DNA of 64,000 bases from Acidimicrobiia bacterium. GTDB taxonomy: Bacteria > Actinomycetota > Acidimicrobiia > Acidimicrobiales > Poriferisodalaceae. Location of the stretch: NCBI GenBank assembly GCA_022821985.1, contig JAJECP010000035.1:124001-188000 (forward strand), given 5' to 3'. The position numbers were made by a program, and so were the translations under genes. This document shows, piece after piece, positions 1 through 22,062 of this stretch. Each line of letters opens with the position of its first letter. The stretch's first letter is position 1. The notes under the pieces were generated by a model. The model was given only the letters and a program-made list of their open reading frames with translations, did no database searches and was not told the DNA's origin.

Positions 1-222
1 CAGCGTCGGCGAGATCGTCATTTCGATCGTTCTGGTCTCTGGGTGCTGCAGATAGATCGCGAGTCCAGGTGCAAGCTTGGAAATCCAGCCAGCGCTGAAC
101 CAACCGAATACGCCTCGCACCGAACGCGCCTCTCGAAAGGCGGGAATGAGGATTTCGCGAGCGAAGGGATTCTCGGGCAGCTTGTAGAAGCTCCGTCGGA
201 GGGTCGAGACGTCGGAGAGCAT
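1..222 (-). CDS. PLD-like (phospholipase-D fold) protein, N-terminal part, cut by the window edge
   Basis: An ATG at 222-220 follows directly on the stop codon of the upstream gene (TGA ATG) and opens 74 codons with no stop to the window edge. The peptide begins MLSDVSTLRRSFYKLPENPF and continues with an ILIPAFREA segment and a GVFGWFSAGWISKLAPGLA segment. This order resembles the start of PLD-like domains fused to SNF2/DEAD helicases, where 'PAL..A.......GYFSS..L..LA.GL' precedes the catalytic HKD motifs. The HKD and helicase motifs would lie outside the window. It is the last visible cistron of the phosphorothioation-type operon, so a nuclease/helicase role in restriction is a reasonable inference. 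The family call rests on a short N-terminal match and is moderate. Confidence 0.55.
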   Translation of the reverse strand, partial: MLSDVSTLRRSFYKLPENPFAREILIPAFREARSVRGVFGWFSAGWISKLAPGLAIYLQHPETRTIEMTISPTL

Positions 223-2310
223 TCAGCTGATCCGCCGCCGGCTCTTGAGTCGCTGCAAGAGATCGTTGGCCGCGGATGAGCCGAGCGGCTCATCACTCGA
301 TTCGACCTGCTCGAACCGAACTGATCCGTGGCGCGAGATGACGAGGCGCGCTTGAGCACCCGCGGTGACACCAATACCGGCCAGCGCTTCTCGGGCTCTA
401 CCGATCTCTGCGGTTCCGTTAACAGATGTCAGCCTCCAAATGACACTCACTGTGCCGCACCCTGCAGGCGCTGTGACGGGTACATCGCGACGATCATTGG
501 GACCGCAGTCAAGTTCGCGAGCTAGCTCGGGGGGGAAGCCCGTAATCGAGAAGCCGTCGAAGTACCTGGCCTCTACTCTGAAGTCCCAACTGAGGTCGCC
601 GTCCGCATTCCGTGTAGCGACATCTTCAACCGGTCTGTACGTGACACTGCTCTCGTCCGCGACGCTCACTAGGCCGTCAACGACCTCGAATTGCCGAGAC
701 GCGACATTGGATCGGACGCTGGCTTCGGTGACACCGAATCGCTCAGGGATGTCCTGAATGAGGAAGCTCAGTGGCACTGCGCCGCCATGCTGGTCGATTC
801 GCTGCTGGATTTCCGCGGGGATGCCCTCGTAGACATCATCGATCCATGCAGTGAGTCCCCATTTGTCCTTGTCAGCCCGGGCAATCGACTCGACGTTCGA
901 GAGCGTGCTACTGAGTGTGCCGAGCGCGAGTCCCCCCACGGCCGCAATCTCTTCCTTCGTTGCGGGCCGGCCTATGTCGAGGAGGGCGAGCTTTGCACGC
1001 GCGCGCAGCGTGTCTCGCAGAGCCACGTGTTCGCCGATGCGCGTGAGCCCCAACAATTCAACGAGCTCATCGAGCATGGACAAGCCATGCGGAAATTCGC
1101 GGGCAACAATCGACTGCAGATCTATGAGCCCAACGTCATCCACCTCGGCCGCAACAGCGCCAGAGAGTGCGCCCAGTAGCTGCTGGCCTGCGTCGCTGAG
1201 AGCGAGCGAACCCATGTAGGACAGCGCGAGCCGTGCCGTAACGAGATACTGGGGCAGGAACTTGGCCGGTTCGCTCGCTTCCTCTTCCGCAGCCTCGACA
1301 GCGGGCTGCAACATAGCGTTGATTCGCTCGGCCACCGAAGTGCTTTCGACGATCGGAGGCAACTCGGCATGCACCAAGGAGGCGATCACCTCCGCATGTT
1401 GACCTCCATAGGCGTCCAGAGCCCTCGCGACCTTGGCCTCGAGCTGCCGGACGCGCTCGCGCGTCACACCGCGCTCTTCGCCGAGCTGCGCAAGTGTGAC
1501 TGATCGCTCCACTTTGTGGCGGATGAAGAGGTCGACGTCCTCAGGATCGTGCTCCGCTTCGACGCGCCTGACTGCACCGATCAACTCCGCTACAGGCCCG
1601 ACATCGGCCGGAAGCTCATCAAGTTCAAGCCTGTCCAGGTTCTCAAGCGTGTCGACCTCGGTGAGCATCTCCACAAACCGAGGGGAGCGAAACGCATCAG
1701 CGGCGGTTCGGCAACCGAGCACATCTCGAGCGGCGGCCAGGGCTGGCAGGAGGCCCTCCGCCAGAACGGGCGCGCCGGCCCATACCGCCACGTCCTCGTC
1801 CGGCACCGCCAGAGAGCCTCTGACGGTCTGGCGCTGCGCTGTCTCAAGCGGTCCCGCCGCCTCCAACACGCACAGCAGGTCGATGAGTGTGGTGAAGCCG
1901 AAATTCGGAAGCTGAAGAAGCTGTTCAGCAGTCACATGCTTCGCGCTCGGCAGCAAGTTGCTGCGCCGAATCACATTCAAGGCCCGAACTGACACCGGCA
2001 GAGCAGCAAGCTCGTCGGCTGAGACCCCTGCCGGAATCGCCTCCAGTCGACCGCTTCCCGCTACCTGCCGTGCCGCGGCCACGAGTTGTTGGGAGCGAGC
2101 TCGGTCAAGGGGCTCCTCAACGACCTGCCAGTAGCTGCCGAGGTCCGCGAACGTCCTGAGCTCGGGCAGACTCGCAACAACCGATGGCAGCGGGCGATCT
2201 CCCAGCGCTTCGATGAACCATGCGGGAAGGACAGGCGTCCCAGGCGCACCCCATGGCGCCACGCATGACGACCGCTCGTCCACCTCGTGCGAACTCCCTA
2301 CAGCGCGCAC
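223..2310 (-). CDS. Large DNA-binding protein with RNAP alpha-CTD-like and sigma region-4-like segments
   Basis: This 695-residue protein has no catalytic motif that I recognise. Residues about 104-152 (LPVSVRALNVIRRSNLL ... LPNFGFTTLIDLL) resemble the helix-hairpin-helix C-terminal domain of the RNA polymerase alpha subunit. Residues about 261-301 (VTLAQLGEERGVTRERVRQL) match the helix-turn-helix of sigma-70 region 4. The C-terminal half contains two stretches that look like winged helices (about 430-490 and 505-560). The GTG start at 2310 overlaps the sspD-like gene by 13 nt; a GTG at 2283, just after that gene's stop and with GGGAG upstream, is an alternative. It is co-transcribed with the SspABCD-like genes and followed at once by a PLD-like gene. 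A DNA-recognition or regulatory subunit of the defence system is inferred, not shown. Confidence 0.8.
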   Translation of the reverse strand: MRAVGSSHEVDERSSCVAPWGAPGTPVLPAWFIEALGDRPLPSVVASLPELRTFADLGSYWQVVEEPLDRARSQQLVAAARQVAGSGRLEAIPAGVSADELAALPVSVRALNVIRRSNLLPSAKHVTAEQLLQLPNFGFTTLIDLLCVLEAAGPLETAQRQTVRGSLAVPDEDVAVWAGAPVLAEGLLPALAAARDVLGCRTAADAFRSPRFVEMLTEVDTLENLDRLELDELPADVGPVAELIGAVRRVEAEHDPEDVDLFIRHKVERSVTLAQLGEERGVTRERVRQLEAKVARALDAYGGQHAEVIASLVHAELPPIVESTSVAERINAMLQPAVEAAEEEASEPAKFLPQYLVTARLALSYMGSLALSDAGQQLLGALSGAVAAEVDDVGLIDLQSIVAREFPHGLSMLDELVELLGLTRIGEHVALRDTLRARAKLALLDIGRPATKEEIAAVGGLALGTLSSTLSNVESIARADKDKWGLTAWIDDVYEGIPAEIQQRIDQHGGAVPLSFLIQDIPERFGVTEASVRSNVASRQFEVVDGLVSVADESSVTYRPVEDVATRNADGDLSWDFRVEARYFDGFSITGFPPELARELDCGPNDRRDVPVTAPAGCGTVSVIWRLTSVNGTAEIGRAREALAGIGVTAGAQARLVISRHGSVRFEQVESSDEPLGSSAANDLLQRLKSRRRIS

Positions 2311-3143
2311 ACCGTACAGGTGTCATCGCTTTCCTCGTCCAACACGCCGGCGAGTGCTTCGATGAGCGGCCGGTCGGGCCTCTCCTTGGTTTGGCGCTTG
2401 AGGGCAGCATCGTGCCGTTCGAGGATCTCGTCACGTCGTCCGACTAGCTCGACGAGGGTTTCGCCGGAGGTCCAGGTGTATTGCCGGCCGTCCATGGCGG
2501 TTGCAGTGAAGTCCGCATCACCGTCGACCCCGGCGTCCTGCAGCACCTTTTGTTCAATTGCAACCGCGCGCTCGAACAAGTCCGGGTGGCGATCGGCCAG
2601 TCCAACCCACTCCGCCTTGCGCTGGTAGAAGCAGAAGTAACAACCGGAGCGGCTGCGCCACTCGTAGTACTCGGGGAGACCAATCCCAGCATCTTCGAGA
2701 ATGCGCATGACGCCGTCGTGATCTATGTCGTCTTCGATGAAGGGAAACACCGTTTCGATGTTGGGCTTGGTCGAGATGTAGCCCTTGCGATTCGCCTCGT
2801 CCGCACGTATCGCGACGTAGGAGATGGCCGGTGCGTCACCGATCCAAGCCTCGATCGGCTTGATCTTCATGTTCTTGGTGCACCAACGCATCTGTGGAGA
2901 TGGCAGAGCGCCGCGGAATACCTCGAACCAGTGGTCGAACCCCCGACTCGCATTGAGACGGGCAATAGGTTTGCCGAGGATCACCTCCAGCCGAGTGAGA
3001 TATTCGTAGGTCTCGGGCAACTCCGCCCCGGTGTCGCAAAAGAAGTACTCCATCTGCGGGACACGGTCGCGCAGGTGAACGGCGAGTGCTGATGAGTCCT
3101 TGCCGCCGGAGATACCGCAGATGTGTCGAGTGCTGCTAGTCAT
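2298..3143 (-). CDS. sspD: PAPS-reductase/ATP-pyrophosphatase family protein, SspD/DndC-like
   Basis: Members of this family adenylate the DNA backbone and help insert sulfur during DNA phosphorothioation. The 281-residue protein has the PP-loop ISGGKDSSAL at 11-20 and a CDTGAELPET segment at 36-45 typical of PAPS reductases. Cys88 (RWCTKN), a Cys168-x2-Cys171 pair (SGCYFCF) and a C-terminal Cys276-x2-Cys279 (CTVCAL) are candidate Fe-S ligands; DndC carries a 4Fe-4S cluster. It overlaps the 3' end of the ATPase gene by 8 nt. The family call is firm. The Ssp assignment comes from its neighbours: a desulfurase, a DUF4007 protein and a P-loop ATPase, with no dndD or dndE in view. Confidence 0.85.
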   Translation of the reverse strand: MTSSTRHICGISGGKDSSALAVHLRDRVPQMEYFFCDTGAELPETYEYLTRLEVILGKPIARLNASRGFDHWFEVFRGALPSPQMRWCTKNMKIKPIEAWIGDAPAISYVAIRADEANRKGYISTKPNIETVFPFIEDDIDHDGVMRILEDAGIGLPEYYEWRSRSGCYFCFYQRKAEWVGLADRHPDLFERAVAIEQKVLQDAGVDGDADFTATAMDGRQYTWTSGETLVELVGRRDEILERHDAALKRQTKERPDRPLIEALAGVLDEESDDTCTVCAL

Positions 3144-6100
3144 TCGATGCCTTCATGTTCTCGACAACTTCGATCATGCCAGAATCACTGGCCGGAGTGT
3201 CGGCTCGAAGGAGGAACTCGCACTGCAGCGCCAGCAGGGCCGATCTCGCCCTTGCGTCCGAACCCAGCGACTTCGCGGCAGATTGGACGGCGCGGCCAAG
3301 TGCCTCCTGAACGGCAGCGCGGTCGCGCTCGTCAAGCACCACTAGACGGTGCTCTTCACGGCCGTCTGGGCTCGTGACGGTGACGCGCCGGGACACATAT
3401 GCGCCATTTCCTATCGCACGGTGGTCAGCATGCAGAGCCATGAGACGGTGGAAGCCAGCGATGCGTAGTGGTAACTGGACTGCGAATCGCACTCGGTCTT
3501 CGTCCGACCACTCCGAGACCGCCTTCTGCGACACCACGGTCGCGATGGCCTTGACCCACTCGTGGTCATCTTCATGGGCTGCGCTGGCGAGTGCCAGGAC
3601 GAACGATCGAATCTCCGGGTCGAGGACCTCCCCAGTCAAAGACGCTGCCTGGCCTGCTACCGCGAGACGAGTTGTCTCCTCGGCTGCATCAAAGAGTTCG
3701 CGTCGCAAGTCTTCCAGGAGAGCCTGCGGGCAGGCCTCCAGCTGATCGACCGCCTGCGCGAGGGCGTGGCTCAGTTCGCGCTTTTGCGGGTAGGTCTTGG
3801 CTGTGCTCCTGACACTGGGGAGGCCGACAGCGTTCGGGAGTTGTTGAAACAGCAATTCGTCAGGCTCCACCGCCTTCTTCAGTGCGTCACGCACCGCGAT
3901 GGCTGCACTCGGCAGTGATCTCGTGTCGAGCGTGTACTTGTCAAGCTGTCCCACAATTCGTACCAAGTGGCCGACGATGGCGAGCACGTTTGCGACCCGG
4001 TGCTTACGAAATCTCTTCGCGACACCAAGTGCATTCGCAAGTTCATCGACGACCTCACGGCGAGCTCCGCTTGCGTTGGCGTAGTGCTTGATGTCGAAGT
4101 GCGCTGGGTTCCGGACCATTCTTTCTGACAGCTCGGCACTCAGCGATGGCCGGAACGTACCGTGCTCATAGATCGCGACCTCGTCCGCGCTCGCAAGCAG
4201 ACCTGCCGTTACGAATACCGGAAGGGCAGCAGCCTTCATCCCAAATGGAGGGGACATCAGCACCGCATGCACGTCAAGCAGGTTTATACGACGTCTCTTG
4301 GCTCGCCGGAATTCCGCCATCAGCGCTTTCCACGCTGGCTGTAGCGACGGTGTCACTGGCTCCGCGAACACCCGCGTCTCGTTGCGGCTGTCGAGGCGGT
4401 GCATCCCCGATCGGCCGAGCATCGAGCGGTACATCGCGACTTCCGGTCCGTAGCCCTCGAAACCAAGGTTCGTCTGGTCTGCCCGCTCGATCATTGCGCT
4501 CAGGAGGATCTTCCGAGCCTTGGCCCCCTGCGAAGTCATATGCGTCCGGTTGATCATCTCGTTGCCGATGACCGGAGTTTGGGAATAGCAACGATCCGCG
4601 GCTTCAGAAAGAGCCGCGCTTCCCCGACCCTTCGAGAGCGGCGTGCTCGCTTCATCAGTAACCAGCAACCAGTCGCAATTCTCTGCGGCGAATGTCGACA
4701 CCAACGCTGCACGCAACTCAGCCTCCGCGAGAGCGAGTCGTTCACCTAGCTCGCTTCGTGCCACCCAGTCGACGTTGACATCTGCCTGCTCGAGCACGGC
4801 GCGTATCGCCGCGACGGATCTTGCCGTCTTTTCCAGTTCGGCAATGGACTCGGGTATTGCCGCGACCGTCGGTTTCGCGGGGCCAGCGGTTTCTACGCGC
4901 TTCGGGCACAACCCCTCCGCACCGACAACGAGCAGGACTTCGCCATCAACGCCCGCAAGAGGTGACACTGGGTCTACCGTTTCGCAGCCGGTGACGTAGC
5001 GACGTGAGAAAGTCCGAAGAATGTTGTATTGGGCCGAATGGCGAGCGGCCACTACGGGCTGCGGGTTGTCGACCTTGGCCAGGATTTCTACGAGCGGCAG
5101 CTGGCTTGCGGCGCCCATTGCTGCGTCGATTCGCGCGCGCAGATCGATGTCACTGCCCTGCCAGATTCGGTACTCGCTGGCGAATTCTCGGTAGGTCACC
5201 AGACTCGACAATTCGAGGCTGTCGAGTAGCTTGTCCGCGCCGGGGTCAACAAGCCGGAGGACATCCGTCGATGCCCTAAGCGGTCCCGCCGTCGAAACCA
5301 GATTGAGGACCGCTATTGCCTTGGCAAGGCAGGTTGCTTCATCGGTGAGCCCGTGAGCGTCGCGCAAGCGAGTTGCGACCTCAGTCCATCGGCGTGATGT
5401 CGGCCCAGCGACGCCAGTCACTACGCCGCCATCAACGAAGTAGTCGTAGACCCTGGGCAGCCCAACCATTGGCAACGCCCCGTGCGCTGCCAATGGCTTC
5501 GCTTCTAGGAAGGCAGGCAGCGCACGCGGATCAGGTCCAGTGAGGAATGAGAACAGCGTTCGCTCGTTTTGCCCATACCGACCGCAGAGCTCTGGCAATA
5601 CAGCGGCAGTCAGAGGGTGCAGCGGATAGCAGTCAGCGATGGCATCTGTCTGGCTCAAGTCCTCGAAGCCCAGCTTCGACAGCGATTGGGCCAACTCACG
5701 TGATTGCGCCACGAGGCGGCGTTGGACCGCGTCATCTGTGATCTCGAAGACCGTCCCAATCAGCGCTCGCGTCTGTGCAGCTGAGTCAACAAACGGAATG
5801 TCCTCGAACCGCCCTTGGACCTTTGCCCATTCGAGCTGTTGGGAGCCGTCACTTCCGACGAAGTAGTCCTCGAATGCCAGATGTTGCAGTGTCAACGTGA
5901 AGATGGGTGACCCAGCCGCCTCTCCCGCTTCAGCCAGTTGTTGCAGCAGGTAGGGATCGGTATCCGCCGATTGATCGACAGCTTCGAGGTTCTTGCCGAA
6001 CTCGTCGATCACGACGAGAAGCGGTGCGTCGTCGGCTAGTGCTCGCGCGACTTCCAGCAACGCCGCCGGAGACGGCCCCGTACGACGGGGATCGGTCGAC

Positions 6101-6609
6101 TTCGCATCAGATAGGGCGGCCTTCAGCGCCTTGGTGGCCGGGAAACGAGTGGCAGTCGGCAACTTGCCAAAGCGTCTCACTACCGCAGAGTGCAGGGCCC
6201 GCAGCACTGTGTGGCTGATTGGTTCGCGGTTCGCGGTGACAACGGCGCGATTGAAGCCCCGCTGGTCGGTCAGGTGATGGCAATGGGCACGGGCGATCAG
6301 CTCGACAACGTCTGGATCAGCTCTCTCGATCAGGCCGAGCGCAGCATCCCGCACCGGACCTGATTCGCCAAAGACCCCATCAATCATCACCGCGAGCGAC
6401 GACTTGCCCGAGCCATAGGGGCCTGTGATCGACCAAGCACCACCTCTCTGCGTCGTCGCGGCAGCGGCTGCGAGGCGTTGAACTACGTCCAGAGCGCGCG
6501 CGGTGACGATGTAGCCGTCAAGGGGCTCCGTGGACGTGATGTCTCGTTCGAGGTTGGCCGACCGCGCAAAGCGCCCCGAAATCGCCAAGACTGAACTGGC
6601 CGGCCTCAT
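3136..6609 (-). CDS. sspC: Large P-loop ATPase, SspC-like
   Basis: A 1,157-residue protein with a Walker A motif GPYGSGKSS at 63-71 and a Walker B motif LLVVIDEFGKN at 197-207, placing it in the P-loop NTPases. The rest is long and largely helical without other recognisable domains. Position (third of the four ssp-type genes) and size fit SspC, the ATPase of the Ssp phosphorothioation system. The gene overlaps the DUF4007 gene upstream by 4 nt (ATGA) and sspD downstream by 8 nt, which implies translational coupling. An alternative is a generic defence-island ATPase (BREX- or Dnd-related), but the complete neighbour set favours SspC. Confidence 0.8.
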   Translation of the reverse strand: MRPASSVLAISGRFARSANLERDITSTEPLDGYIVTARALDVVQRLAAAAATTQRGGAWSITGPYGSGKSSLAVMIDGVFGESGPVRDAALGLIERADPDVVELIARAHCHHLTDQRGFNRAVVTANREPISHTVLRALHSAVVRRFGKLPTATRFPATKALKAALSDAKSTDPRRTGPSPAALLEVARALADDAPLLVVIDEFGKNLEAVDQSADTDPYLLQQLAEAGEAAGSPIFTLTLQHLAFEDYFVGSDGSQQLEWAKVQGRFEDIPFVDSAAQTRALIGTVFEITDDAVQRRLVAQSRELAQSLSKLGFEDLSQTDAIADCYPLHPLTAAVLPELCGRYGQNERTLFSFLTGPDPRALPAFLEAKPLAAHGALPMVGLPRVYDYFVDGGVVTGVAGPTSRRWTEVATRLRDAHGLTDEATCLAKAIAVLNLVSTAGPLRASTDVLRLVDPGADKLLDSLELSSLVTYREFASEYRIWQGSDIDLRARIDAAMGAASQLPLVEILAKVDNPQPVVAARHSAQYNILRTFSRRYVTGCETVDPVSPLAGVDGEVLLVVGAEGLCPKRVETAGPAKPTVAAIPESIAELEKTARSVAAIRAVLEQADVNVDWVARSELGERLALAEAELRAALVSTFAAENCDWLLVTDEASTPLSKGRGSAALSEAADRCYSQTPVIGNEMINRTHMTSQGAKARKILLSAMIERADQTNLGFEGYGPEVAMYRSMLGRSGMHRLDSRNETRVFAEPVTPSLQPAWKALMAEFRRAKRRRINLLDVHAVLMSPPFGMKAAALPVFVTAGLLASADEVAIYEHGTFRPSLSAELSERMVRNPAHFDIKHYANASGARREVVDELANALGVAKRFRKHRVANVLAIVGHLVRIVGQLDKYTLDTRSLPSAAIAVRDALKKAVEPDELLFQQLPNAVGLPSVRSTAKTYPQKRELSHALAQAVDQLEACPQALLEDLRRELFDAAEETTRLAVAGQAASLTGEVLDPEIRSFVLALASAAHEDDHEWVKAIATVVSQKAVSEWSDEDRVRFAVQLPLRIAGFHRLMALHADHRAIGNGAYVSRRVTVTSPDGREEHRLVVLDERDRAAVQEALGRAVQSAAKSLGSDARARSALLALQCEFLLRADTPASDSGMIEVVENMKASND

Positions 6610-7667
6610 GCCGCTGACCTCACCGGTTGGCGCTCCCTGGCCGCCAGCAGATCAGCTATCGGACCTTCGCGTTCAATCGGCAAGTCTTCGCGATCGACCG
6701 GCAGATCACCATTCTCCCCAGCCCAGGCGTCATCTATGCCTGCGCCGTAGTACCGATGCAACACGTCGACCGCGGCCTCCGAAACGTCGCGAGTCCAGCT
6801 GAGTTGTTGCCCAACCGTCGACGACATCAGGCTGACACCCTCCAATGTGCTCAGCGGCGCTTCAAGGATTCGCTGCATGTCGCTCTCGGTGAGTTTGAAT
6901 GCGCGCCCCGGCGCACCAGATTCGTTCGCCAGTTGCGAAAGCGTCACCGTATTTCCTGTCGGCGGCCGCCGAGACAAGAAATCAAGTGTCGCAAACAACA
7001 CAATCTCATCTGGAAGCGTCGGCTTCGCTCCAAGGGTGAAGCGGTAGTTGCCCGAAGCAACAGAAGCCCCAATCAACCCGAGCTCGCGCAACGGACAGTC
7101 GAGTACATCGTCGAGCGACGACCGACCCGATCGAGTTGCTGGCGCATACGTACGCAATAGCGCGCTGATGTCCTTTCGCATCGAGGATTCATGAGGGACC
7201 GGAACCGACGCACTGGACTCGAGCTGCCCTCGAACCGCTATCTCCAGTGCCTTGTCGTCGAACTCGACGAAGTGAAGTTCGTTGAACGCGATCCACCAAA
7301 CAGGTAAATGGCTCCTGGGCGCAAGCAGCATCCAGTGCAGGAGCCAGATGGTCCCGGGATCCTCCATGTACGGATCCCAGCCGTCGTCGCAGAACAGGGC
7401 ATGGCCGAATCGGGTCGGGACCATTTCAGGAGCGCGCTGGCTCTCCGACTGCGGATCCTTCGTGATGATCTTCGCAGCTTGGCCCCAAAACTTGATGGCC
7501 CGGACCATGTTCTTGCCCACGCCCATGTTGACTGGTGCGTCGGCTTCGCTGAATCCGTGCTGACGCGTAGCTGCCGTCGCGTAGGCCTTTCGAAACCACC
7601 CGTAGCGCGGATGAAACGTCTCGTGCCTGGCAAACGTCGCCATCACCGCATCCGACAAGCGCATCAC
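6606..7667 (-). CDS. sspB: DUF4007 protein, SspB-like
   Basis: The N-terminus carries the DUF4007 hallmark: FARHETFHPRYGWFRK (about residues 11-26), followed by the conserved VNMGVGKNMVRAIKFWG. DUF4007 is the domain I associate with SspB, reported as a DNA-nicking component of single-strand phosphorothioation systems. The 353 residues lie within the expected size. It overlaps sspA upstream and the ATPase gene downstream by 4 nt each (ATGA). The C-terminal ~40 residues are acidic then basic and look disordered. Catalytic residues cannot be assigned from the sequence alone. Confidence 0.85.
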   Translation of the reverse strand: MMRLSDAVMATFARHETFHPRYGWFRKAYATAATRQHGFSEADAPVNMGVGKNMVRAIKFWGQAAKIITKDPQSESQRAPEMVPTRFGHALFCDDGWDPYMEDPGTIWLLHWMLLAPRSHLPVWWIAFNELHFVEFDDKALEIAVRGQLESSASVPVPHESSMRKDISALLRTYAPATRSGRSSLDDVLDCPLRELGLIGASVASGNYRFTLGAKPTLPDEIVLFATLDFLSRRPPTGNTVTLSQLANESGAPGRAFKLTESDMQRILEAPLSTLEGVSLMSSTVGQQLSWTRDVSEAAVDVLHRYYGAGIDDAWAGENGDLPVDREDLPIEREGPIADLLAARERQPVRSAA

Positions 7668-8827
7668 GGGCTCCCGTTCAGGAATCGAACGCGCTCAACG
7701 GCACGAATCGTTCGATCCGCCGCCTCTTCGATCTCAGCGGCCGTCGTAAATCGGCCCAAGCTGAACCGCAGGGACTCTTCCGCAGCCGCGCGGTCCATGC
7801 CCATTGCCAAGAGCACTGGCGACGGCCCCAGAGCCCCTGCGCTGCAGGCGCTACCGGACGACACCGCAACGGATTCCATGTTCGTCATGACGGCGTCCCC
7901 GTCAGCTCCAACGAATCGAACATTTGCCGTGTTGGGTACACGACGGCTCACACTGCCGTTCTGAGATACCCCATCCAAACCGTGCACGAGTTTCGATACC
8001 AGGGCGTCTCGGAGCCCACTGACGCGGATCGCTTCGCTGGACTGCTCATCGGCTGCGATCTCACTCGCAGCGCCGAAACCCACTATTCCCGACACGTTCA
8101 GAGATCCTGAGCGCCGTCCGCGCTCATGCCCGCCCCCGAGGAGAAGCGGTCGTAGTTGGTGTGACATCGCCTTGGTGACGATGAGTGCGCCTACGCCCGT
8201 GGGCCCACAGATCTTGTGGCCGCTAATCGAAGCCGCATCCACGCCAGCAGATGCCATGTCGAAGGGCAGCCGTCCTACGATTTGGGTCGCGTCGCTGTGG
8301 AAGAACGCCCCAGAATCTGCGACACATTCGCCGATTGCCGGAAGGTCATTGATGACGCCAGTCTCACTGTTGGCAGCCATGACGGATACGAGCAGAACGT
8401 CTTGGCCCAGCATCTCGTCAAGTGCTGCAAGATCGACGCAGCCGTCGCTGGTCACTGGAACGATGTCCACCTTCGCGCGGCCGTGTTGTGCAAGCCAGTC
8501 CGCGGTTGCCATCACCGACGCGTGCTCGACTGCAGACACCAAGATCCGAGAGCGTTCAGGGCTCACGTCCGATACCAAGCCTTGAAGGGCGAGATTGTTG
8601 GCCTCCGTCGCGCCAGCCGTGAAGATCACGTGGCTCGTTGCAGCGGCCCCGACGAGTCGACTCACTTGCTCCCGGGCGAGATCGACGCGTGCCGCCTGAG
8701 CCCTGCCGAACCTGTGAACCGAAGACGCATTTCCCACACTGTCTCGTAGGGCTGGGGTCATTGCTTCGAGCACCCGCGGATCGAGCGGTGCTGAGCCGTT
8801 GTAGTCCATGTAGATGTCGGTGCTCAT
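7664..8827 (-). CDS. sspA: Cysteine desulfurase of the phosphorothioation operon, SspA/DndA-like
   Basis: This is a 387-residue PLP-dependent class V aminotransferase-fold enzyme that would mobilise sulfur from cysteine. It begins with MDYNGSAPLDP (NifS/IscS-type substrate loop), has the PLP lysine at Lys205 (SISGHKICGPTGVGA) and the persulfide cysteine at Cys328 in SSGSACSAG. The short active-site loop is like that of IscS/DndA. No iscU or suf genes lie nearby. Instead it is second in an operon with a PAPS-reductase-type protein, which points to a dedicated sulfur donor for DNA modification. The ATG at 8827 overlaps the HTH gene by 4 nt. Confidence 0.9.
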   Translation of the reverse strand: MSTDIYMDYNGSAPLDPRVLEAMTPALRDSVGNASSVHRFGRAQAARVDLAREQVSRLVGAAATSHVIFTAGATEANNLALQGLVSDVSPERSRILVSAVEHASVMATADWLAQHGRAKVDIVPVTSDGCVDLAALDEMLGQDVLLVSVMAANSETGVINDLPAIGECVADSGAFFHSDATQIVGRLPFDMASAGVDAASISGHKICGPTGVGALIVTKAMSHQLRPLLLGGGHERGRRSGSLNVSGIVGFGAASEIAADEQSSEAIRVSGLRDALVSKLVHGLDGVSQNGSVSRRVPNTANVRFVGADGDAVMTNMESVAVSSGSACSAGALGPSPVLLAMGMDRAAAEESLRFSLGRFTTAAEIEEAADRTIRAVERVRFLNGSP

Positions 8828-9036
8828 GTTGGCCCCGGTGTCAAGTAGGCCAGCAGCTCCGATCGGCGAAATCGCCAGGCCCGACCAACCTTGGCAGCGG
8901 GCAATTCGCCCAGCCGCGCCCTTCGGAGCACCGTCTTTTTGGACACTTTGAGCAGTTCCGCAGCTTCGTCGGGCGTCAGCACCTCGTCACTCCGAACAAG
9001 GTTGCTCAACTGCTCACCTGGAGGCATGTCCGTCAT
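8824..9036 (-). CDS. Excisionase/MerR-type HTH protein, first cistron of the ssp-like operon
   Basis: A 70-residue single-domain DNA-binding protein of the HTH_17 (helix_turn_helix, excisionase) type: LTPDEAAELLKVSKKTVLRR, then GELPAAKVGRAWRFRRSELLAYL. An in-frame GTG at 9060 would give 78 residues, but the ATG at 9036 has GAGGAGCGAGGC just upstream and is preferred. Its stop overlaps the start of sspA by 4 nt. As the leading cistron it could regulate the operon. A small palindrome near 9186 (TGAGA-C-TCTCA) in the upstream gap is a possible operator, though it may only be chance. Confidence 0.8.
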   Translation of the reverse strand: MTDMPPGEQLSNLVRSDEVLTPDEAAELLKVSKKTVLRRARLGELPAAKVGRAWRFRRSELLAYLTPGPT

Positions 9037-9219
9037 GCCTCGCTCCTCTGTTGGGGCCACAAGAGGACAGTACGGCCCTCCGAGGCCCTCGCGGGTGGAT
9101 GCTCCGCAGGTCCAGAATTCGCCGCGACTGCTGACATCGCCGACACCGGCGGAGATGCGGAGTGATTGCCCGACAACTTGCGGGCTGAGACTCTCACAAT
9201 CTGCGGTGTATCGCCTGCT

Positions 9220-10896
9220 TCAGATCTCTTCAGCGGCGAGTTGGTGGCGCTGCACCTTGCCGAGGGCGTTGCGGGGCAGCGCTGCGATGCGGTAGGTGCG
9301 GCGGGGTCGCTTGAAGTACGCGAGGCGCTCGCCCACGAAGTCCTTCAGCTCGTCGTCGTCGAAATCCCGAGTCGCGACCACGTAGGCCACCACCACTTCG
9401 CCCCACTCGGGGTCGGGCTCGCCGCCGACGGCGCACTCGGCGACGTCGGGGTGCGAGGCGATGACTTCCTCGACCTCGCGGGGGTACACGTTGAAGCCGC
9501 CGCAGATGATGAGCTCCTTGGCACGGCCGACGATGCGCAGGTAGCCGTCGTCCCACTGGCCCAGGTCGCCGGTGCGGAACCAGCCGTCGCTGAATGACGC
9601 CGCGTTCTCGGCGGGCCGCTCCCAGTAGCCCGAGAACACGTTGGGTCCCCGCACGAGGATCTCGGCAGCCTCGGGGCCAGCCGTCGCAGCTTCGTCGCCG
9701 TCCGCCGGCTCGCTATCGCCGTCGCTGACGTCCAGCGCTTCGAGGCGCAGCTCGACGCCCGGCAGCGGGAAGCCCACCGTGCCGGCACGGCGAGGCTCGT
9801 CGTGCGGATTCGACACCAGCATCACTGTCTCGGTCATGCCGTAGCGCTCGATGACGTGCTGGCCGCTGGCCTCCCGCACGGCGTCGTGCAGCTCAGCGGG
9901 CATGGGTGCCGAACCCGACGCGCACAGCCGCAGCGCCGACAGTTCGGCGGCCCGCGGCGAGGCGACCAGCCGCGAGTACATGGTCGGCACGCCGAAGAAC
10001 ATGGTGGCCTGGTGCTCGCGAATGGCATCGAAGACGGCGTCGGGCTCGAACGTGGGCTGCAGCACGGCCCGAGCGCCAACAGTGAGCGTGCCGTGGAGCG
10101 CCACGCCGAGACCGTGCATATGGAACAGCGGCAGCGCCAGCACGAGCACGTCATCGGGCATCCAGCGCCACGCCAGCTCCAGTGCCCGCACCGACACCAG
10201 CAGGTTCGCGTGGCTCAGCACCGCACCCTTGGGCCGCCCGGTAGTGCCCGACGTGTACCCAATCAGCGCCGGTTCATCGGGTCGGCGTTGATGCGCTAAC
10301 GCCACCAGATCGAATCTGGACCCTTCATGGGGCGCGGCACCGACGCCGCCGGGAGCGACTGCATCAGCGCTGCCGGCGGCGCGCTCGACGGCACCTGCGC
10401 GGCCAGCGAGCAAGTCTGATGCATCGAAGTCGCTGACCAATACTGCTGGATCAGCGTCGGCGATCCACCGCGCCCACTCGCCGGGTTCGCCGACGCTCTC
10501 CACCAATGCGGCTGCGGGACGGCAATCAGCCACCACGCTGCGTACTTCATCGGCCCGGTAAGCGCCGTTCAGCGGTACCACCACAGCTCCCGTCGCGAGC
10601 AGTGCCGCGTGCGCCGCAACCAGGCGAGACGAACTCGGACCGCTCATCAGCACGCGATCGCCCGCGACGATGCCCGCGCTCGCCAAGCGCCCGGCAATCT
10701 CTTGGGCGCGAGCGGCGAGCTGAACGCCGCTCACCCAGCCTTCGTGCGCATCCCACACCACGTCTCGCTGCGGATCGGCAGACCAGCGGTCCAGCCACAC
10801 CGCCGGCAGCGTGCCACCCGCGCCCAGATCAACCTCGGCGGCACTGCTACCTGCCGGCAGATGCCTGGACCAATGCGACTCCTGCCCATCGGTCAT
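9220..10896 (-). CDS. AMP-dependent acyl-CoA synthetase/ligase
   Basis: An ANL-superfamily adenylating enzyme that should activate a carboxylic acid to its CoA thioester. It has the P-loop YTSGTTGRPKGAV, the RYGMTET motif, WFRTGDLGQWDDGYL, the hinge GRAKELIICGGFNVYP and a C-terminal GKVQRHQL lysine region. The arrangement resembles malonyl-CoA (MatB) or medium-chain acyl-CoA ligases; the substrate cannot be read from the sequence. The ATG at 10896 (GAGGGAG about 9 nt upstream) is preferred over an in-frame GTG at 10917. An acidic insert near residues 395-415 (SDGDSEPADGDEA) is unusual. It stands alone, downstream of tRNA-Glu. Confidence 0.88.
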   Translation of the reverse strand: MTDGQESHWSRHLPAGSSAAEVDLGAGGTLPAVWLDRWSADPQRDVVWDAHEGWVSGVQLAARAQEIAGRLASAGIVAGDRVLMSGPSSSRLVAAHAALLATGAVVVPLNGAYRADEVRSVVADCRPAAALVESVGEPGEWARWIADADPAVLVSDFDASDLLAGRAGAVERAAGSADAVAPGGVGAAPHEGSRFDLVALAHQRRPDEPALIGYTSGTTGRPKGAVLSHANLLVSVRALELAWRWMPDDVLVLALPLFHMHGLGVALHGTLTVGARAVLQPTFEPDAVFDAIREHQATMFFGVPTMYSRLVASPRAAELSALRLCASGSAPMPAELHDAVREASGQHVIERYGMTETVMLVSNPHDEPRRAGTVGFPLPGVELRLEALDVSDGDSEPADGDEAATAGPEAAEILVRGPNVFSGYWERPAENAASFSDGWFRTGDLGQWDDGYLRIVGRAKELIICGGFNVYPREVEEVIASHPDVAECAVGGEPDPEWGEVVVAYVVATRDFDDDELKDFVGERLAYFKRPRRTYRIAALPRNALGKVQRHQLAAEEI

Positions 10897-16230: not shown

Positions 16231-17220
16231 GTGGCATTCGCCGATCTGGATCAGTCTGAAGAACTGCTGGTCAAGGCGAGATGGCGGGACAGCCCGCTTT
16301 GCCCTCGATGCGACAGCGAGGGCGCCGAGATACGGGACAAGCCCGTCCGGGTTGAGTGGACCACTTGGCGTTGCGGCATCTGCCGAACACGGTTCAGGGT
16401 TACGACAGGCACCGCGCTGCACTCCACGAAGCTGACGCCGTCGGACTGGATTGCTGTGGCGAGCATGGACGGGCTCTCGGCGCCCCGCATCGCTGCGGCG
16501 ATCGATGTCTCACTGGTCACCGCTCGCAAGATCGCTGCGGTGATGGCGCCGGTGCGCGACGGCTCGCGGTCGGAGCGGGTGCGGCACATGATGAGTCCAC
16601 GCCATCGGCATCAGCCTGCGACCGACCCGTGGCAGATTGATCCCTTACCGGCCACGCTGCGTGCCGAAGAGAGCCCGCTCGGGTCGCTGAGCGACGGGGC
16701 CAAGGCGGTCCTGAACGCCTTGCGGGCCCGGCCGTTCGGAGCGACCGCAGCGAAACTCACGGAGCTTGCCGGCGTGTCCTATGCACAAACACTGCGGTGC
16801 CTCGCCCGCCTCGAGGAACGCGGCTGGGTCGAAGCCGCCAAAACCAGCATCCACCATGGATACGAGCTGCGCCGCGCAATCGTGTGGTCACTGTCGTGGT
16901 CGGACGGCTGCATGCATGCGCTGTCGTACCTTCGTGACCGGCCGACTCGCCCAGTCGAGGAGATCCCCGACCGCGTGCCTCGCCGCTTTTGGCGCAACTT
17001 CTGGTCGGGCGCATCGGCCGACACGCTCAGAATCTCCCAGCACGGCCTGCATATCGCCGAGACGCTGATCGGTGGGCACGACGCGTCCGCTAGAGCCTGG
17101 GCGCTCGCGAACCTGCCGACACCCGCGCTGCGCGAATGCCGCACACTGCGAGGATTTGAAACCGACTGGCTAGCCAAACTGCTCGATCAAGAGATCACCC
17201 GCCGAGCGGTCGCAGCGTGA
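16231..17220 (+). CDS. AbiEi-like antitoxin with N-terminal transposase-type zinc ribbon
   Basis: A 329-residue protein. Residues 24-51 form a four-cysteine zinc ribbon (CPRC at 24-27, CGIC at 48-51) followed by RFRVTTGTALHSTKL and a helix-turn-helix at about 84-106, the arrangement of IS1595-type transposase N-termini. There is no DDE/DDN catalytic core. Residues about 155-205 are a winged helix (LTELAGVSYAQTLRCLARLEE). The gene overlaps the AbiEii-family gene by 4 nt (GTGA), so by position it is the cognate antitoxin/repressor. The GTG start at 16231 lacks a strong Shine-Dalgarno site. The antitoxin role is inferred from context. Confidence 0.7.
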   Translation: MAFADLDQSEELLVKARWRDSPLCPRCDSEGAEIRDKPVRVEWTTWRCGICRTRFRVTTGTALHSTKLTPSDWIAVASMDGLSAPRIAAAIDVSLVTARKIAAVMAPVRDGSRSERVRHMMSPRHRHQPATDPWQIDPLPATLRAEESPLGSLSDGAKAVLNALRARPFGATAAKLTELAGVSYAQTLRCLARLEERGWVEAAKTSIHHGYELRRAIVWSLSWSDGCMHALSYLRDRPTRPVEEIPDRVPRRFWRNFWSGASADTLRISQHGLHIAETLIGGHDASARAWALANLPTPALRECRTLRGFETDWLAKLLDQEITRRAVAA

Positions 17221-17909
17221 GCGAGATCGACGCATGGGCCGATGTCTTGCCGACACGCCTGCGGCAGGCATGGCCGTACGTCGCTGAGTGCGCCAACAGT
17301 GTCGGCGGCGTGCTGATGGGAGGCACCGCTGTGGCCATCCACCTGCGGCACCGGGTCTCCGAGGATCTCGACGTAGTCACGCTGCGGAAGTTCTCCGGGC
17401 GGGCGATAGAGAAGCGACTCCAGCGGGCAGCCTCGCACGTGGAGACCGACGAAGTAGCCGACAACATGTTCCACGGCTACGTCGACGGCGTGCGGGTCGA
17501 CATCTTCCGGGCACTGCCGTCCGATGATGTACAGCCGCCAGACATGCGATGGGTTGCTCCGCGCACGACTATCGAGGACATGGAGGTCGGCTCCATAGCC
17601 GACCTAATGGCCGCCAAACTCGATGTGATCAGATTCCGCCCGAAGCTACGCGACTACCTTGACATCGCCACAATGGACCAGTCCGGAGCGTGCAGCCTCG
17701 AGGCCGGCGCGGGCTACTACTGCCAGCGGTTCGGGCACAGCCACCCGCCTCGTGCCCTGAATGAAATCGTGCGCCTGCTCGAACGGCCCGGCACACTGCC
17801 GAACGACCCCGACTACGAGAGCCGCCGCGACGACGCCCTCCTTCACCTGCGCAAAAGGGCACCAGCCCTGCGCGACCGAATCGCCGAAATGCGCGACCCC
17901 GCCTCGTAG
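17217..17909 (+). CDS. abiEii: AbiEii/AbiGii-type nucleotidyltransferase toxin
   Basis: A 230-residue protein of the AbiEii nucleotidyltransferase family, which transfers nucleotides to tRNA 3' ends and blocks growth during phage infection. The DNA polymerase beta-like motif is intact: GGTAVAIHLRHRVSEDLDVV, with the GG pair at 35-36 and the metal-binding aspartates at 50 and 52. The downstream IADLMAAKLDVIRFRPKLRDYLDI matches the conserved AbiEii region ending in D-x-x-D/YLDI. It is translationally coupled to the preceding antitoxin-like gene. The family call is good; activity as a toxin is inferred. Confidence 0.85.
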   Translation: MSEIDAWADVLPTRLRQAWPYVAECANSVGGVLMGGTAVAIHLRHRVSEDLDVVTLRKFSGRAIEKRLQRAASHVETDEVADNMFHGYVDGVRVDIFRALPSDDVQPPDMRWVAPRTTIEDMEVGSIADLMAAKLDVIRFRPKLRDYLDIATMDQSGACSLEAGAGYYCQRFGHSHPPRALNEIVRLLERPGTLPNDPDYESRRDDALLHLRKRAPALRDRIAEMRDPAS

Positions 17910-17925
17910 CCAAGCGAGTCCTTTG

Positions 17926-18495
17926 ACAAGGGAGCGTCTGGCAGTCCCTCGACCGTTTGCTGAATCACCTCGTGCACACCGCAACCAGCGATCGCGGTCA
18001 GTGGGCCTGTCATGGGCAGCCTGGCGTGACGAAACAGGCGTGTTGGCAGCGTTCGGCGCTGGGGCAGTGAGCGCAGCAGTTACGTCCTGCGATCTACTGG
18101 ATATGAGTCGTCGTACAGCACATCAGCAGCAGAATGAGTTACACCTCGCTTGCGCCTAGCCCACTTGCCTACTCTCCCGACCGCGAGCAACACAAGAAGA
18201 AGCGCCGCCAATACGAGACAGAAGACGACGGCGACCTCCTCGCGTGCGAGACCGGTGTCTTGCCCCAGCTGTCGTCGCAGGAGGCTCCACCCGAGCGCGA
18301 TAAACACGATCGCTGAGGCACCAGTCATCAGCGGCCGCTTGCGTCGACCGGAACGCAATGACTGCGTTTCGCCGTCCCCACGGCGAGCCGTACGTCGTTG
18401 TGTCGCTCGCATGGATACGCCAGTCTACGGCACACTCATCAATCGTCAGCTGCCCTCATCTCAGCAGGCCAAGGGATTGTCAGACGCTCCCTTGT
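17926..18495. repeat. Segment bounded by ~25-bp inverted repeats (possible decayed mobile element)
   Basis: The left repeat at 17926-17951 (ACAAGGGAGCGTCTGGCAGT...) and the right repeat at 18470-18495, read in reverse complement (ACAAGGGAGCGTCTGACAAT...), match for 15 bases without a gap and then with about three mismatches over the next 11. Each copy also folds on itself (AGGGA/TCCCT). They enclose about 570 bp holding only a small membrane ORF. No flanking target duplication was seen. The arrangement fits a MITE-like or decayed element, or two unrelated hairpin terminators that share sequence. Confidence 0.45.
18080..18412 (-). CDS. Small hypothetical membrane protein
   Basis: A 110-residue ORF, not matched to a family. 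It has a basic N-terminus (RRTARRGDGE ... GRRKRP), then two hydrophobic stretches, TGASAIVFIALGWSLL and VAVVFCLVLAALLLVLLAV, separated by a short polar loop, and a basic tail GKWARRKR. The pattern fits a two-pass inner-membrane protein. Met29 could be the true start, giving a shorter product. It fills most of the otherwise empty interval between the AbiE pair and the Calx-beta gene and lies inside the inverted-repeat segment. Coding status is uncertain. Confidence 0.4.
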   Translation of the reverse strand: MRATQRRTARRGDGETQSLRSGRRKRPLMTGASAIVFIALGWSLLRRQLGQDTGLAREEVAVVFCLVLAALLLVLLAVGRVGKWARRKRGVTHSAADVLYDDSYPVDRRT

Positions 18496-20882: not shown

Positions 20883-21002
20883 GCGGGTTTCGTAGTTGTA
20901 CGCGTCGACCGTCTCGTAGTTGTAAACATCGCGCGTCTCATAGTTGTAGGCGTCAACCGTCTCGTAGTTGTACACGTCACGTGTTTCATAGTGGTACGCA
21001 TC
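20883..21002 (-). repeat. Five 24-bp tandem repeats encoding DxYxYETx
   Basis: Exactly 120 bp encode five 8-residue units: DAYHYETR, DVYNYETV, DAYNYETR, DVYNYETV and DAYNYETR. They alternate between two types, giving a 48-bp higher-order period. The units lie just before a Cys-rich region of the Calx-beta protein and are rich in Tyr and acidic residues. Confidence 0.9.
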
Positions 21003-21120
21003 AACGGTTTCTGTCACTGTCTCAGTGACATTCCGGTATGCCCACCGAATGCACCCGGTACCGAACTCGTGGTCGTATTGGGCGCAGTGGCGCTGTCGAC
21101 GTGTGTAGGTCTGGGGTGAC

Positions 21121-21255
21121 CGTCTCAGTGAATGGAGCGACACGAACAGTCTCGGTGTACGGCGCCTTGCGCACCTGCGCCGTGTACGGAGCGACACGAA
21201 CAGTCTCGGTGTACGGCGCCTTGCGCACCTGCGCCGTGAATGGAGCGACACGAAC
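21121..21255 (-). repeat. Five 27-bp tandem repeats encoding VR(V/K)AP(F/Y)Txx
   Basis: Exactly 135 bp encode five 9-residue units: VRVAPFTAQ, VRKAPYTET, VRVAPYTAQ, VRKAPYTET and VRVAPFTET. The 54-bp pair VRVAPxTAQ+VRKAPYTET is nearly perfectly duplicated. The array belongs to the upstream reading frame of the Calx-beta gene and lies immediately before the second frameshift. Confidence 0.9.
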
Positions 21256-21946: not shown

Positions 21947-21976
21947 AAAAGGCCGACGGGCATAAGCCCGTCGGCC
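21947..21976 (-). terminator. Intrinsic terminator of the liv operon
   Basis: A perfect 11-bp stem GGCCGACGGGC/GCCCGTCGGCC with a 4-nt loop (21951-21976) is followed on the minus strand by a short T run (21950-21947). It lies about 90 bp downstream of the substrate-binding protein stop codon. Confidence 0.85.
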
Positions 21977-22062
21977 CAATCGCGCTGACTCGGAGGCCAG
22001 CTAGCTACTGTCGGACGCCGCAGCCGGTTTGAACCAGCTGTTGCGTCTGGCAGGAGGCTTGC

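What the first reader, a model, noticed from the sequence alone, without database searches (positions are those of the whole stretch)
1..9036. Ssp-type phosphorothioation operon with an unfamiliar downstream module
Five co-directional, 4- to 8-nt overlapping genes match HTH, SspA (desulfurase), SspB (DUF4007), SspC (ATPase) and SspD (PP-loop). They run straight into a 695-residue alpha-CTD/sigma-4-like protein and a PLD-like protein. SspE (DUF262/DUF1524) would be the usual partner and is not seen. The added pair may be an alternative restriction module.
Basis: partly seen in the sequence, partly recalled or inferred. Interest (0 to 1): 0.85.

Follow-up and report, generated by a model that had tools for sequence, protein, structure and literature searches.

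The report
Sulfur-marking operon with swappable antiviral effector
A bacterial gene cluster appears to mark its own DNA with sulfur and joins this writer to an antiviral module so far known from a different sulfur-marking system, which suggests that bacteria mix and match the two halves of this defence.

Summary
HTH, SspA, SspB, SspC and SspD lie in one overlapping operon that runs into a 695-aa DNA-binding protein (p695) and a PLD protein cut by the window edge. Past the edge, the "unfamiliar module" is largely known: the PLD protein is PbeA (HKD nuclease plus SF2 helicase), followed by genes like PbeB, PbeC and PbeD in order and size, then GIY-YIG-like and DndB-like genes.

What I did not find in print is the operon SspABCD-p695-PbeABCD. 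It recurs in bins of several phyla; in 296 genomes of the class, 6 of 11 SspB genomes carry PbeA within 10 kb. p695 evolves with Pbe more than with Ssp. Two relatives with 93% identical Ssp DNA diverge one base past the SspD stop codon: one continues with p695-PbeABCD, the other with a distant Pbe set lacking p695. p695-Pbe thus behaves as one exchangeable effector; it also occurs beside Dnd and beside a third sulfur-type cassette.

The island fills a site empty in nine of ten same-genus genomes. No DUF262 (SspE-type) or PglZ gene was found in this 90%-complete genome. p695 has alpha-CTD-like (weak), sigma-4, winged-helix and B3-like parts; target recognition for PbeA is inferred. Verdict: new variant of a known kind.

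The parts
8824..9060 (-). 78-aa excisionase/BldC-like helix-turn-helix protein, first gene of the operon; of the 29 fetched loci only L026, the sister locus, has it
   Evidence: HTH_17 3.5e-18, excise 1.1e-15, MAD1 1.5e-12 far under its cut-off
7664..8827 (-). SspA, cysteine desulfurase (387 aa); PLP-lysine and catalytic-cysteine motifs present
   Evidence: PADLOC SspA 3.9e-127, DndA 1e-123; motifs
6606..7667 (-). SspB, DUF4007, presumed DNA nickase (353 aa)
   Evidence: DUF4007 1.8e-77; PADLOC SspB 3.4e-96; solved SspB 6juf/6lb9 9.6e-62
3136..6609 (-). SspC ATPase (1157 aa), Walker A GPYGSGKS and Walker B VVIDEF present
   Evidence: PADLOC SspC 1039 bits, BrxC 303.5 bits
2298..3143 (-). SspD, PP-loop sulfurtransferase (281 aa), SGGKDSS and GCYFCF motifs present
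   Evidence: PADLOC SspD 2.7e-108, BrxP 9.4e-10
223..2310 (-). p695: multi-module DNA-binding protein, proposed target-recognition subunit of the Pbe effector
1852..2037 (-). p695 residues 92-153: alpha-CTD-like segment (weak)
   Evidence: best PDB hit RNA polymerase alpha, E=0.025
1405..1593 (-). p695 residues 240-302: sigma region-4-like HTH
   Evidence: Pfam 3.4e-6; family profile against PDB sigma factors, best 9e-13
304..594 (-). p695 residues 573-669: B3-like DNA-binding pseudobarrel (predicted fold)
   Evidence: AlphaFold2 pLDDT 90.7; first 22 Foldseek hits in PDB are B3 or B3-like (some of these labels recalled), best E 3.6e-3, none under 0.001
1..222 (-). N-terminal 74 aa of PbeA (739 aa in all); continues outside the window to C31:122003
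   Evidence: L002:16003-18222; PADLOC PbeA 2.2e-150; HKD and SF2 motifs present
1..9244 (.). window part of a 17.07-kb inserted island (C31:116174-133244; window base 1 is C31:124001). Outside the window: PbeB-like 67 aa, PbeC 731 aa, PbeD-like 154 aa (start chosen by me; the frame could begin earlier, 186 aa), GIY-YIG-like 222 aa, DndB-like 667 aa
   Evidence: empty-site comparison; genes

Best explanation
This is a phosphorothioate-based (PT-based) antiviral system made of two interchangeable halves. SspABCD (writer) would put sulfur into the host DNA backbone: SspA draws sulfur from cysteine, SspD activates it, SspB and SspC nick and position the DNA. p695-PbeABCD (effector) would act on incoming DNA that lacks the mark: PbeC, a CxC-type ABC ATPase, with PbeD scans DNA, and PbeA, an HKD nuclease plus SF2 translocase, stops its replication. 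p695 would be an extra DNA-recognition subunit of the effector, using sigma-4, winged-helix and B3-like domains to select DNA for PbeA. Shown here: gene content, order, motifs, recurrence, co-evolution of p695 with Pbe, and exchange of the effector behind a kept writer. Inferred from published Ssp and Pbe work: PT writing and PT-dependent immunity. Inferred only: the role of p695.
For: Writer: all four Ssp proteins and their motifs. Effector: PbeA 2.2e-150 and PbeC 1.2e-40; a 67-aa and a 154-aa gene in the PbeB and PbeD places, against 66 and 152 aa in the described system; CxC motif in 19 of 19 PbeC rows. Coupling: at least one of SspB/C/D beside Pbe in 19 of 29 loci fetched by PbeA; PbeA within 10 kb of SspB in 6 of 11 SspB genomes; an overlapping SspABCD-PbeABCD operon in a cultured isolate. 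p695 with Pbe: upstream of PbeA in 24 of 29 and behind PbeD in 1; a PbeA start codon -4 to +2 nt from the p695 stop in 20 of 23 loci; distance correlation 0.82 with PbeA against 0.46 with SspC. Exchange: L034 and L079 share 92.9% identical DNA to one base past the SspD stop, then carry Pbe sets of 28-37% protein identity, one with p695, one without. No DUF262 (SspE-type) gene in this genome.
Against: No wet-lab data for this organism. Ssp and Pbe distances correlate poorly over 19 loci (r 0.16-0.34, some p just under 0.05), so they are not a fixed pair; without two odd loci SspC-PbeA is 0.61. p695 is not needed everywhere: absent in 4 of 29 loci and from the Ssp-Pbe loci of G252, G272 and G214. 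Relatives of p695 also stand alone. Own PbeB and PbeD match no family above a cut-off. No Foldseek match of p695 or its B3-like domain reaches E 0.001. In plasmids the Ssp-Pbe pairing is rare: 2 among the 60 listed of 66 SspD-bearing records.
Confidence: 0.62

Rival explanations
1. p695 is a transcription regulator of the operon (a sigma-like or promoter-binding factor), not part of the effector complex; SspABCD-PbeABCD works without it.
For: Sigma region-4 and weak alpha-CTD-like segments; only DNA-binding modules recognised; p695 absent in 4 of 29 loci and from the loci of G252, G272 and G214; solo relatives.
Against: Stop-start spacing to PbeA of -4 to +2 nt in 20 of 23 loci, co-evolution with PbeA and PbeC, and presence or absence together with its own Pbe type in L034/L079 fit a complex partner better. 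In two Dnd plasmids the sigma-like gene directly precedes PbeA, not the writer.
Confidence: 0.28
2. Two separate defence systems merely sit next to each other: a solitary Ssp writer and a Pbe module that uses another mark or none.
For: 320 of 553 PbeAC lacked DndCD in the published survey (PMC6459918, passages). Ssp and Pbe distances correlate weakly. One class genome pairs PbeA with a D12 methyltransferase. Among the 60 listed of 66 SspD-bearing plasmid records only 2 gave a PbeA hit at 1e-30.
Against: Continuous overlapping operon; repeated Ssp-Pbe pairings in bins of several phyla; the effector changes exactly behind the SspD stop while the writer is kept.
Confidence: 0.12
3. The effector is a suicide switch: sensing of infection frees PbeA to cut host DNA, with PbeB as restrainer (an alternative put forward by Rakesh et al. 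2024, PMC10853773).
For: HKD motif H142-x-K144, GSxN and E173 kept in 18 of 19 aligned PbeA rows, this one included; the row L082 was only a fragment. Argument read in section 16 of PMC10853773.
Against: The tested archaeal Pbe stopped viral replication without visible cutting of viral DNA and spared PT-marked virus (PMC6459918, passages).
Confidence: 0.25
4. It is a type 4 BREX system, which shares SspC/BrxC, a PAPS reductase and DUF4007.
For: BrxC model 303.5 bits on SspC; shared components described in PMC12839542 (passages).
Against: No PglZ found in the genome (the model rings in 2 of 14 controls), whereas PglZ was kept in all 457 taxa analysed in that paper; SspC 1039 bits beats BrxC, and SspD (360 bits) beats BrxP (35).
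Confidence: 0.02

Closest known systems
DndCDEA-PbeABCD (Xiong et al. 2019, PMC6459918)
   Same: PbeA (HKD + SF2 helicase), CxC ABC-ATPase PbeC, and PbeB- and PbeD-sized genes, in the same order and sizes, behind a PT writer
   Different: Writer here is SspABCD, not DndCDEA; extra gene p695 in front of PbeA; GIY-YIG-like and DndB-like genes behind
SspABCD-SspE (Xiong et al. 2020; I did not fetch it, known through other papers)
   Same: Same writer genes in the same order A-B-C-D
   Different: No DUF262 domain gene found in the genome; effector is Pbe
SspABCD-SspFGH (PMC8092258)
   Same: Ssp writer with a multi-gene effector that is not SspE
   Different: SspF has a Walker A motif and SspH an FtsK-like end; Pfam shows no FtsK among the 12 island proteins it lists (PbeA included); SspFGH proteins themselves were not compared
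Type 4 BREX (PMC12839542)
   Same: Shares SspC/BrxC, PAPS reductase, DUF4007 and often a desulfurase
   Different: No PglZ found; BrxL not searched for in the genome
BfiI and LlaJI-type restriction enzymes
   Same: Their DNA-recognition domains are among the Foldseek matches of the p695 C-terminus (BfiI rank 32 and 38, LlaJI.R1 rank 3); that BfiI joins an HKD nuclease to a B3-like domain is recalled
   Different: Here nuclease (PbeA) and B3-like domain (p695) are on neighbouring genes, and PbeA also has an SF2 motor
MzaA of the MZA system
   Same: Only the sigma region-4 stretch matches (4.8e-5, residues 268-300)
   Different: 22 of 800 cut-off bits; PADLOC flags no other MZA protein among those scanned

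Membership tests
SspABCD PT writer | SspA cysteine desulfurase with PLP lysine and catalytic cysteine | tested here: met
   PADLOC 3.9e-127, with DndA nearly equal; motifs
SspABCD PT writer | SspB DUF4007 protein | tested here: met
   6juf 9.6e-62. Nicking activity not testable
SspABCD PT writer | SspC ATPase and SspD PP-loop protein with motifs present | tested here: met
SspABCD PT writer | Phosphorothioate at 5'-CCA-3' in genomic DNA | not testable with these tools
   needs LC-MS/MS
SspABCD-SspE | SspE (DUF262/DUF1524) effector | tested here: not met
   PF03235: 0 of 1 genome; rings in 8 of 14 controls. DUF1524 not searched. Assembly about 90% complete
SspABCD-SspFGH | SspFGH genes, with FtsK-like SspH | tested here: inconclusive
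   no FtsK domain in the Pfam scans of the island proteins; SspFGH sequences not compared and genome-wide search not run
PbeABCD | PbeA: HKD endonuclease fused to SF2 helicase | tested here: met
   PADLOC 2.2e-150; TIGR04095 2e-96, 324 of 600 cut-off bits; motifs
PbeABCD | PbeC: CxC-type ABC ATPase | tested here: met
   PADLOC 1.2e-40; Walker A, CxC and signature motifs
PbeABCD | PbeB, about 66 aa, between A and C | tested here: inconclusive
   67-aa ORF at the right place with similar ORFs in many relatives; no PADLOC hit and only a sub-threshold Pfam hit
PbeABCD | PbeD, about 152 aa, DndE cognate, behind C | tested here: inconclusive
   154-aa ORF at the right place, no family hit; the PbeD of G252 hits TIGR04062 at 1.1e-5, below cut-off
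DndCDEA-PbeABCD | Dnd writer next to Pbe | tested here: not met
   writer here is SspABCD
PbeABCD | PT-dependent block of viral replication without DNA cleavage | not testable with these tools
   needs phage challenge
Type 4 BREX | PglZ | tested here: not met
   0 of 1 genome; rings in 2 of 14 controls
Type 4 BREX | BrxL | not tested
   no genome-wide search made

The most novel reading that the evidence does not exclude
p695 is an adaptor that makes one effector (PbeABCD) portable between genetically unrelated sulfur writers: Ssp, Dnd, and a third, apparently undescribed one (PP-loop protein, cysteine desulfurase, GHKL ATPase, two further proteins, putative methyltransferase). It would do so with modules borrowed from promoter recognition (alpha-CTD-like, sigma-4) and a restriction-enzyme-like B3 domain, reading target DNA or its mark for PbeA.
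Probability: 0.3. Interest if true: 0.8.

Novelty: new variant of a known kind. Interest (0 to 1): 0.6.

Why it matters
The published Pbe survey left 320 of 553 PbeAC pairs without a Dnd writer, 155 of them near methyltransferases (PMC6459918, passages). Ssp operons could account for part of such cases: in this class 6 of 9 genomes with full-length PbeA pair it with Ssp. Ssp is reported to mark one strand and Dnd typically both (PMC8092258), so a Pbe effector behind Ssp asks directly whether the effector reads the mark, its strand, or the site. The natural exchange L034/L079 suggests chimaeras for that test, and a cultured isolate carries an Ssp-Pbe operon on a plasmid.

Tried and rejected
Rejected or set aside: SspFGH (different domains; proteins not compared directly); type 4 BREX (no PglZ); SspE elsewhere in the genome (no DUF262); p695 as an MZA protein (only the sigma-4 stretch matches).

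Led nowhere or was limited: a six-row p695 alignment was too divergent for the contig scan, so I scanned with a PbeA pair; that scan uses two peptides shared by two p695-bearing loci, so its 29 loci are biased toward p695. The PbeA model is no genome marker by itself: it rings in 295 of 296 genomes and in all 14 controls. I used a cut of 400 bits, chosen after seeing the gap between 438 and 224 bits; G214's PbeA comes in two pieces. The VIA-align library was not available. Sequence search gave no convincing PDB relative of the B3-like domain. The plasmid search with p695 found only 4 distant records. A downstream match between L034 and L079 occurs twice in L034, so it is a repeat and does not prove a shared downstream flank; only the upstream side, about 1.2 kb before SspA, is shown to be shared. 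Many loci are MAG bins, so the taxon names may be wrong through mis-binning. PMC7544218 (Krishnan et al. 2020) is not held and I did not fetch the 2020 Ssp paper, so prior mention of Ssp beside Pbe-type genes there cannot be excluded.

Rows and counts: for the distance tests L026 (near-identical to the window) was removed and L032, L047, L048 (incomplete) were not entered; 19 rows remained, 13 with p695. Some entered rows are fragments (SspA of L037 and L049, SspC of L037, PbeA of L082). With L027 and L043 left out, SspC-SspD itself falls to 0.24 in the 11 remaining rows, so small differences between such values mean little. Genomes met twice: L026 and G296 (100% identical over 19.3 kb); L037 and G242, L046 and G106 (equal contig lengths). 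In one search, 4 of the 10 matching genomes (G043, G138, G068, G135) have only short, weak matches and were left out of the split of 7 loci, which includes the window's own. PbeA starts: 20 of 23 by script; L050 runs off its contig and was not resolved there, L051 is +8, L054 has none.

Literature: searches. None of the listings I checked names an Ssp-Pbe operon. All seven papers that hold both PbeA and SspB were seen in passages: PMC9239217, PMC10853773 (also section 16), PMC7464106, PMC8053081, PMC9646914, PMC12707154, PMC11676413. PMC7464106 counts pbeA-D together with 'PT-modifying genes' that pool dnd and ssp, so Ssp strains with Pbe may lie unnamed in its tallies. PMC6459918 and PMC12839542 were seen in passages, PMC8092258 in its first fifth; other papers only as listings. 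Supplements were not read.
Full report
What is there. The window is C31:124001-188000 of a 3.31-Mb, 41-contig assembly about 90% complete; the closest named relative met is an Acidimicrobiia MAG (L026). On the minus strand five genes overlap by 4, 4, 4 and 8 nt: a 78-aa HTH protein, SspA, SspB, SspC, SspD. PADLOC and Pfam place all four Ssp proteins with high scores, though SspA scores almost as well as DndA. The motifs expected for desulfurase, ATPase and PP-loop activity are present. SspD overlaps p695, which abuts an open frame cut by the window edge.

Past the edge. I fetched C31:90001-126000 and 123001-134500. The cut frame is a 739-aa protein, followed by ORFs of 67, 731 and 154 aa that overlap or lie within 11 bases of each other, then after 186 bases by a 222-aa and a 667-aa ORF. 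The 154-aa start is my choice; the frame could begin earlier (186 aa). PADLOC: PbeA 2.2e-150 and PbeC 1.2e-40. The published system has PbeA (HKD endonuclease + SF2 helicase), PbeB of 66 aa, PbeC (CxC ABC ATPase) and PbeD of 152 aa (DndE cognate) in that order (PMC6459918 passages; PMC10853773 section 16). Sizes, order and the PbeA and PbeC motifs agree; PbeB and PbeD have no family hit above a cut-off. The last two ORFs are GIY-YIG-like (3.3e-4) and DndB/DGQHR-like (3.9e-6 in Pfam, 5.4e-11 in NCBIfam), all under their cut-offs.

An insertion. In the ten same-genus genomes searched, the two flanking genes (an AMP-dependent ligase and a xanthine-dehydrogenase-type gene, names by recall) match 7-90 bases apart in nine and 16 kb apart in one, G296. 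Alignment to three empty sites: two agree within 2 bases on C31:116174-133244, 17.07 kb; the third gives an end about 100 bases off on one side. No integrase shows in the family scans of the 12 island genes. G296 carries the same island at about 95% identity, but its GIY-YIG and DndB-like genes are replaced by a reversed HATPase-type gene, so those two look accessory.

The combination recurs. A contig scan with a PbeA pair gave 29 loci, named as Acidimicrobiia, other Actinomycetota, Gammaproteobacteria, BD2-11, Latescibacteria, Gemmatimonadetes, Acidobacteria, a planctomycete, a Rhodobacteraceae MAG and unnamed bacteria. At least one of SspB, C, D lies beside Pbe in 19 of 29 (only D in L032, C and D in L047 and L048, where the contigs end); 8 of 29 carry another cassette, and 2 show no writer (L042 truncated, L054). 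p695 is upstream of PbeA in 24, behind PbeD in 1, absent in 4. This sample is biased by its query. A less biased sample, 296 genomes of the class: SspB in 11, PbeA above 400 bits in 9, both within 10 kb in 6 (G000, G242, G252, G106, G272, G214). The other three PbeA genomes pair with Dnd (G248, G075: DndC 3.4e-189 and 1.4e-191) or a D12 methyltransferase (G253); G075 also has SspB on another contig. In plasmids, 66 records have SspD-like and 11 have PbeA-like genes; among the 60 SspD records listed 2 have both, side by side: Sphingomonadaceae OTU29MARTA1 (one overlapping operon, no p695) and Rhizobium indigoferae (convergent). So in plasmids the pairing is a minority.

p695 belongs to the effector. 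Over 19 loci protein distances correlate within Ssp (SspB-SspC 0.97, SspC-SspD 0.91) and within Pbe (0.96, 0.97), but weakly between them (0.16-0.34, p 0.04-0.20). p695 follows PbeA (0.82) and PbeC (0.84) more than SspC (0.46) or SspB (0.51). With SspC held constant its correlation with PbeA stays 0.81; with PbeA held constant its correlation with SspC is 0.41 in 13 rows and -0.18 in 11. Without L027 and L043, two loci with divergent Ssp, SspC-PbeA rises to 0.61, so part of the set has travelled together, while SspC-SspD falls to 0.24 there. An in-frame PbeA start codon lies -4 to +2 nt from the p695 stop in 20 of 23 loci. The clearest case is L034 against L079 (G252): 92.9% identical DNA over 7.7 kb from about 1.2 kb before SspA through SspD, ending one base past the SspD stop; Ssp proteins 94-98% identical, PbeA, C and D only 37, 28 and 28%, p695 present in one only. 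A further downstream match is a repeat and shows nothing about that flank. The effector was thus exchanged behind a kept writer. The trees agree: G252 and L034 are sisters for SspC and in different deep clades for PbeA, both with starred support (long branches flagged elsewhere in the trees). p695-like genes also stand before PbeA beside Dnd writers in G248, G075 and an Arthrobacter plasmid (Dnd there by weak similarity only) and, as about 1020-aa sigma-like proteins of weaker similarity, in Ruegeria and Pontibrevibacter plasmids. Solo relatives exist in G137 (two), G272 and mycobacterial plasmids.

What p695 looks like. AlphaFold2 with 29 rows: pLDDT 84.7, pTM 0.60. Segments: alpha-CTD-like 92-153 (weak); sigma-4 HTH 240-302; helical and winged-helix regions between about 300 and 550, with a SelB C-terminal fragment as best fold match, E 1.8e-3; a B3-like pseudobarrel at 573-669, where the first 22 hits are B3 or B3-like (several of these labels recalled), E from 3.6e-3 upward. 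No match reaches E 0.001. No catalytic domain was recognised. I infer a DNA-recognition subunit; a transcription regulator is the main rival.

Mechanism. Published work: SspABCD writes PT on one strand at CCA (PMC8092258, first fifth); archaeal PbeABCD needs all four genes and PT in the host, stops viral replication and spares PT-marked virus (PMC6459918 passages; the same passages say that pbeBCD without pbeA kept a low level of resistance); Rakesh et al. argue that PbeA should cut DNA, viral or host. For this locus I expect Ssp to mark host DNA and p695-Pbe to stop replication of unmarked DNA. Composition is shown; function is inferred.

Novelty. The seven papers of the library that hold both PbeA and SspB were seen in passages and none describes an Ssp-Pbe operon; a phrase search gave none. 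One of them pools dnd and ssp when counting pbeA-D, and two key papers were not seen. PADLOC has models for the parts, and NCBI names some PbeA proteins 'DNA phosphorothioation system restriction enzyme'. I file it as a new variant: known writer, known effector, apparently new pairing, plus a new effector component.

Noticed in passing
L033 (reverse strand), L035, L036, L038, L039, L041, L050, L051: A conserved cassette beside p695-Pbe in 8 of 29 loci: GHKL-type ATPase (PADLOC PDC-M33A 2.1e-32, tested on L041), a 300-aa protein and a DUF6339 protein in all 8, a DndA/SspA-like desulfurase in 6, a PP-loop protein in 5, a 'phosphorothioation-associated' methyltransferase (TIGR04096) in 5; some contigs are truncated. 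It may be a third sulfur-modification writer. No paper in the library holds DUF6339 or PDC-M33.
   Followed up: partly
L002:10277-12951; L019:10698-12344; L047:3412-5189: A GIY-YIG-like gene followed by a DndB/DGQHR-like gene occurs in three Ssp-Pbe loci at different places in the operon (the L047 one is GIY-YIG-like by eye only); in two Rhodobacterales plasmids the DGQHR gene has a different, hydrophobic partner.
   Followed up: partly
L026:15176-17197: In the sister genome the GIY-YIG-like and DndB-like pair is replaced by a reversed 673-aa HATPase-type gene at the same site.
   Followed up: no
L029, L037 (same contig as L019), L044 near SspC; L048 and L082 in PbeA: SspC or PbeA is split over two frames in some relatives; assembly error or real breakage not decided.
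   Followed up: no
G181:C34:10889-17734: SspB with a different SF2 helicase (87 bits to the PbeA model) about 5 kb downstream, perhaps yet another Ssp effector.
   Followed up: no
L028:15221-16297: An Ssp-Pbe locus without p695 carries a DUF262 (GmrSD_N) gene right behind PbeD, possibly two effectors on one writer.
   Followed up: no
phage records MT835506, MT835493, MT837093: Three unannotated contigs from human faecal samples, deposited as phages, encode PbeA-like proteins or parts of them (28% identity; one covers over 80% of the query), so the effector may travel on mobile elements.
   Followed up: no
window 16231-24000: Lower G+C (0.58-0.61 at 18-24 kb) near a protein with a sub-threshold IS1595-type zinc ribbon at 16231-17220; may be another acquired patch.
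   Followed up: no
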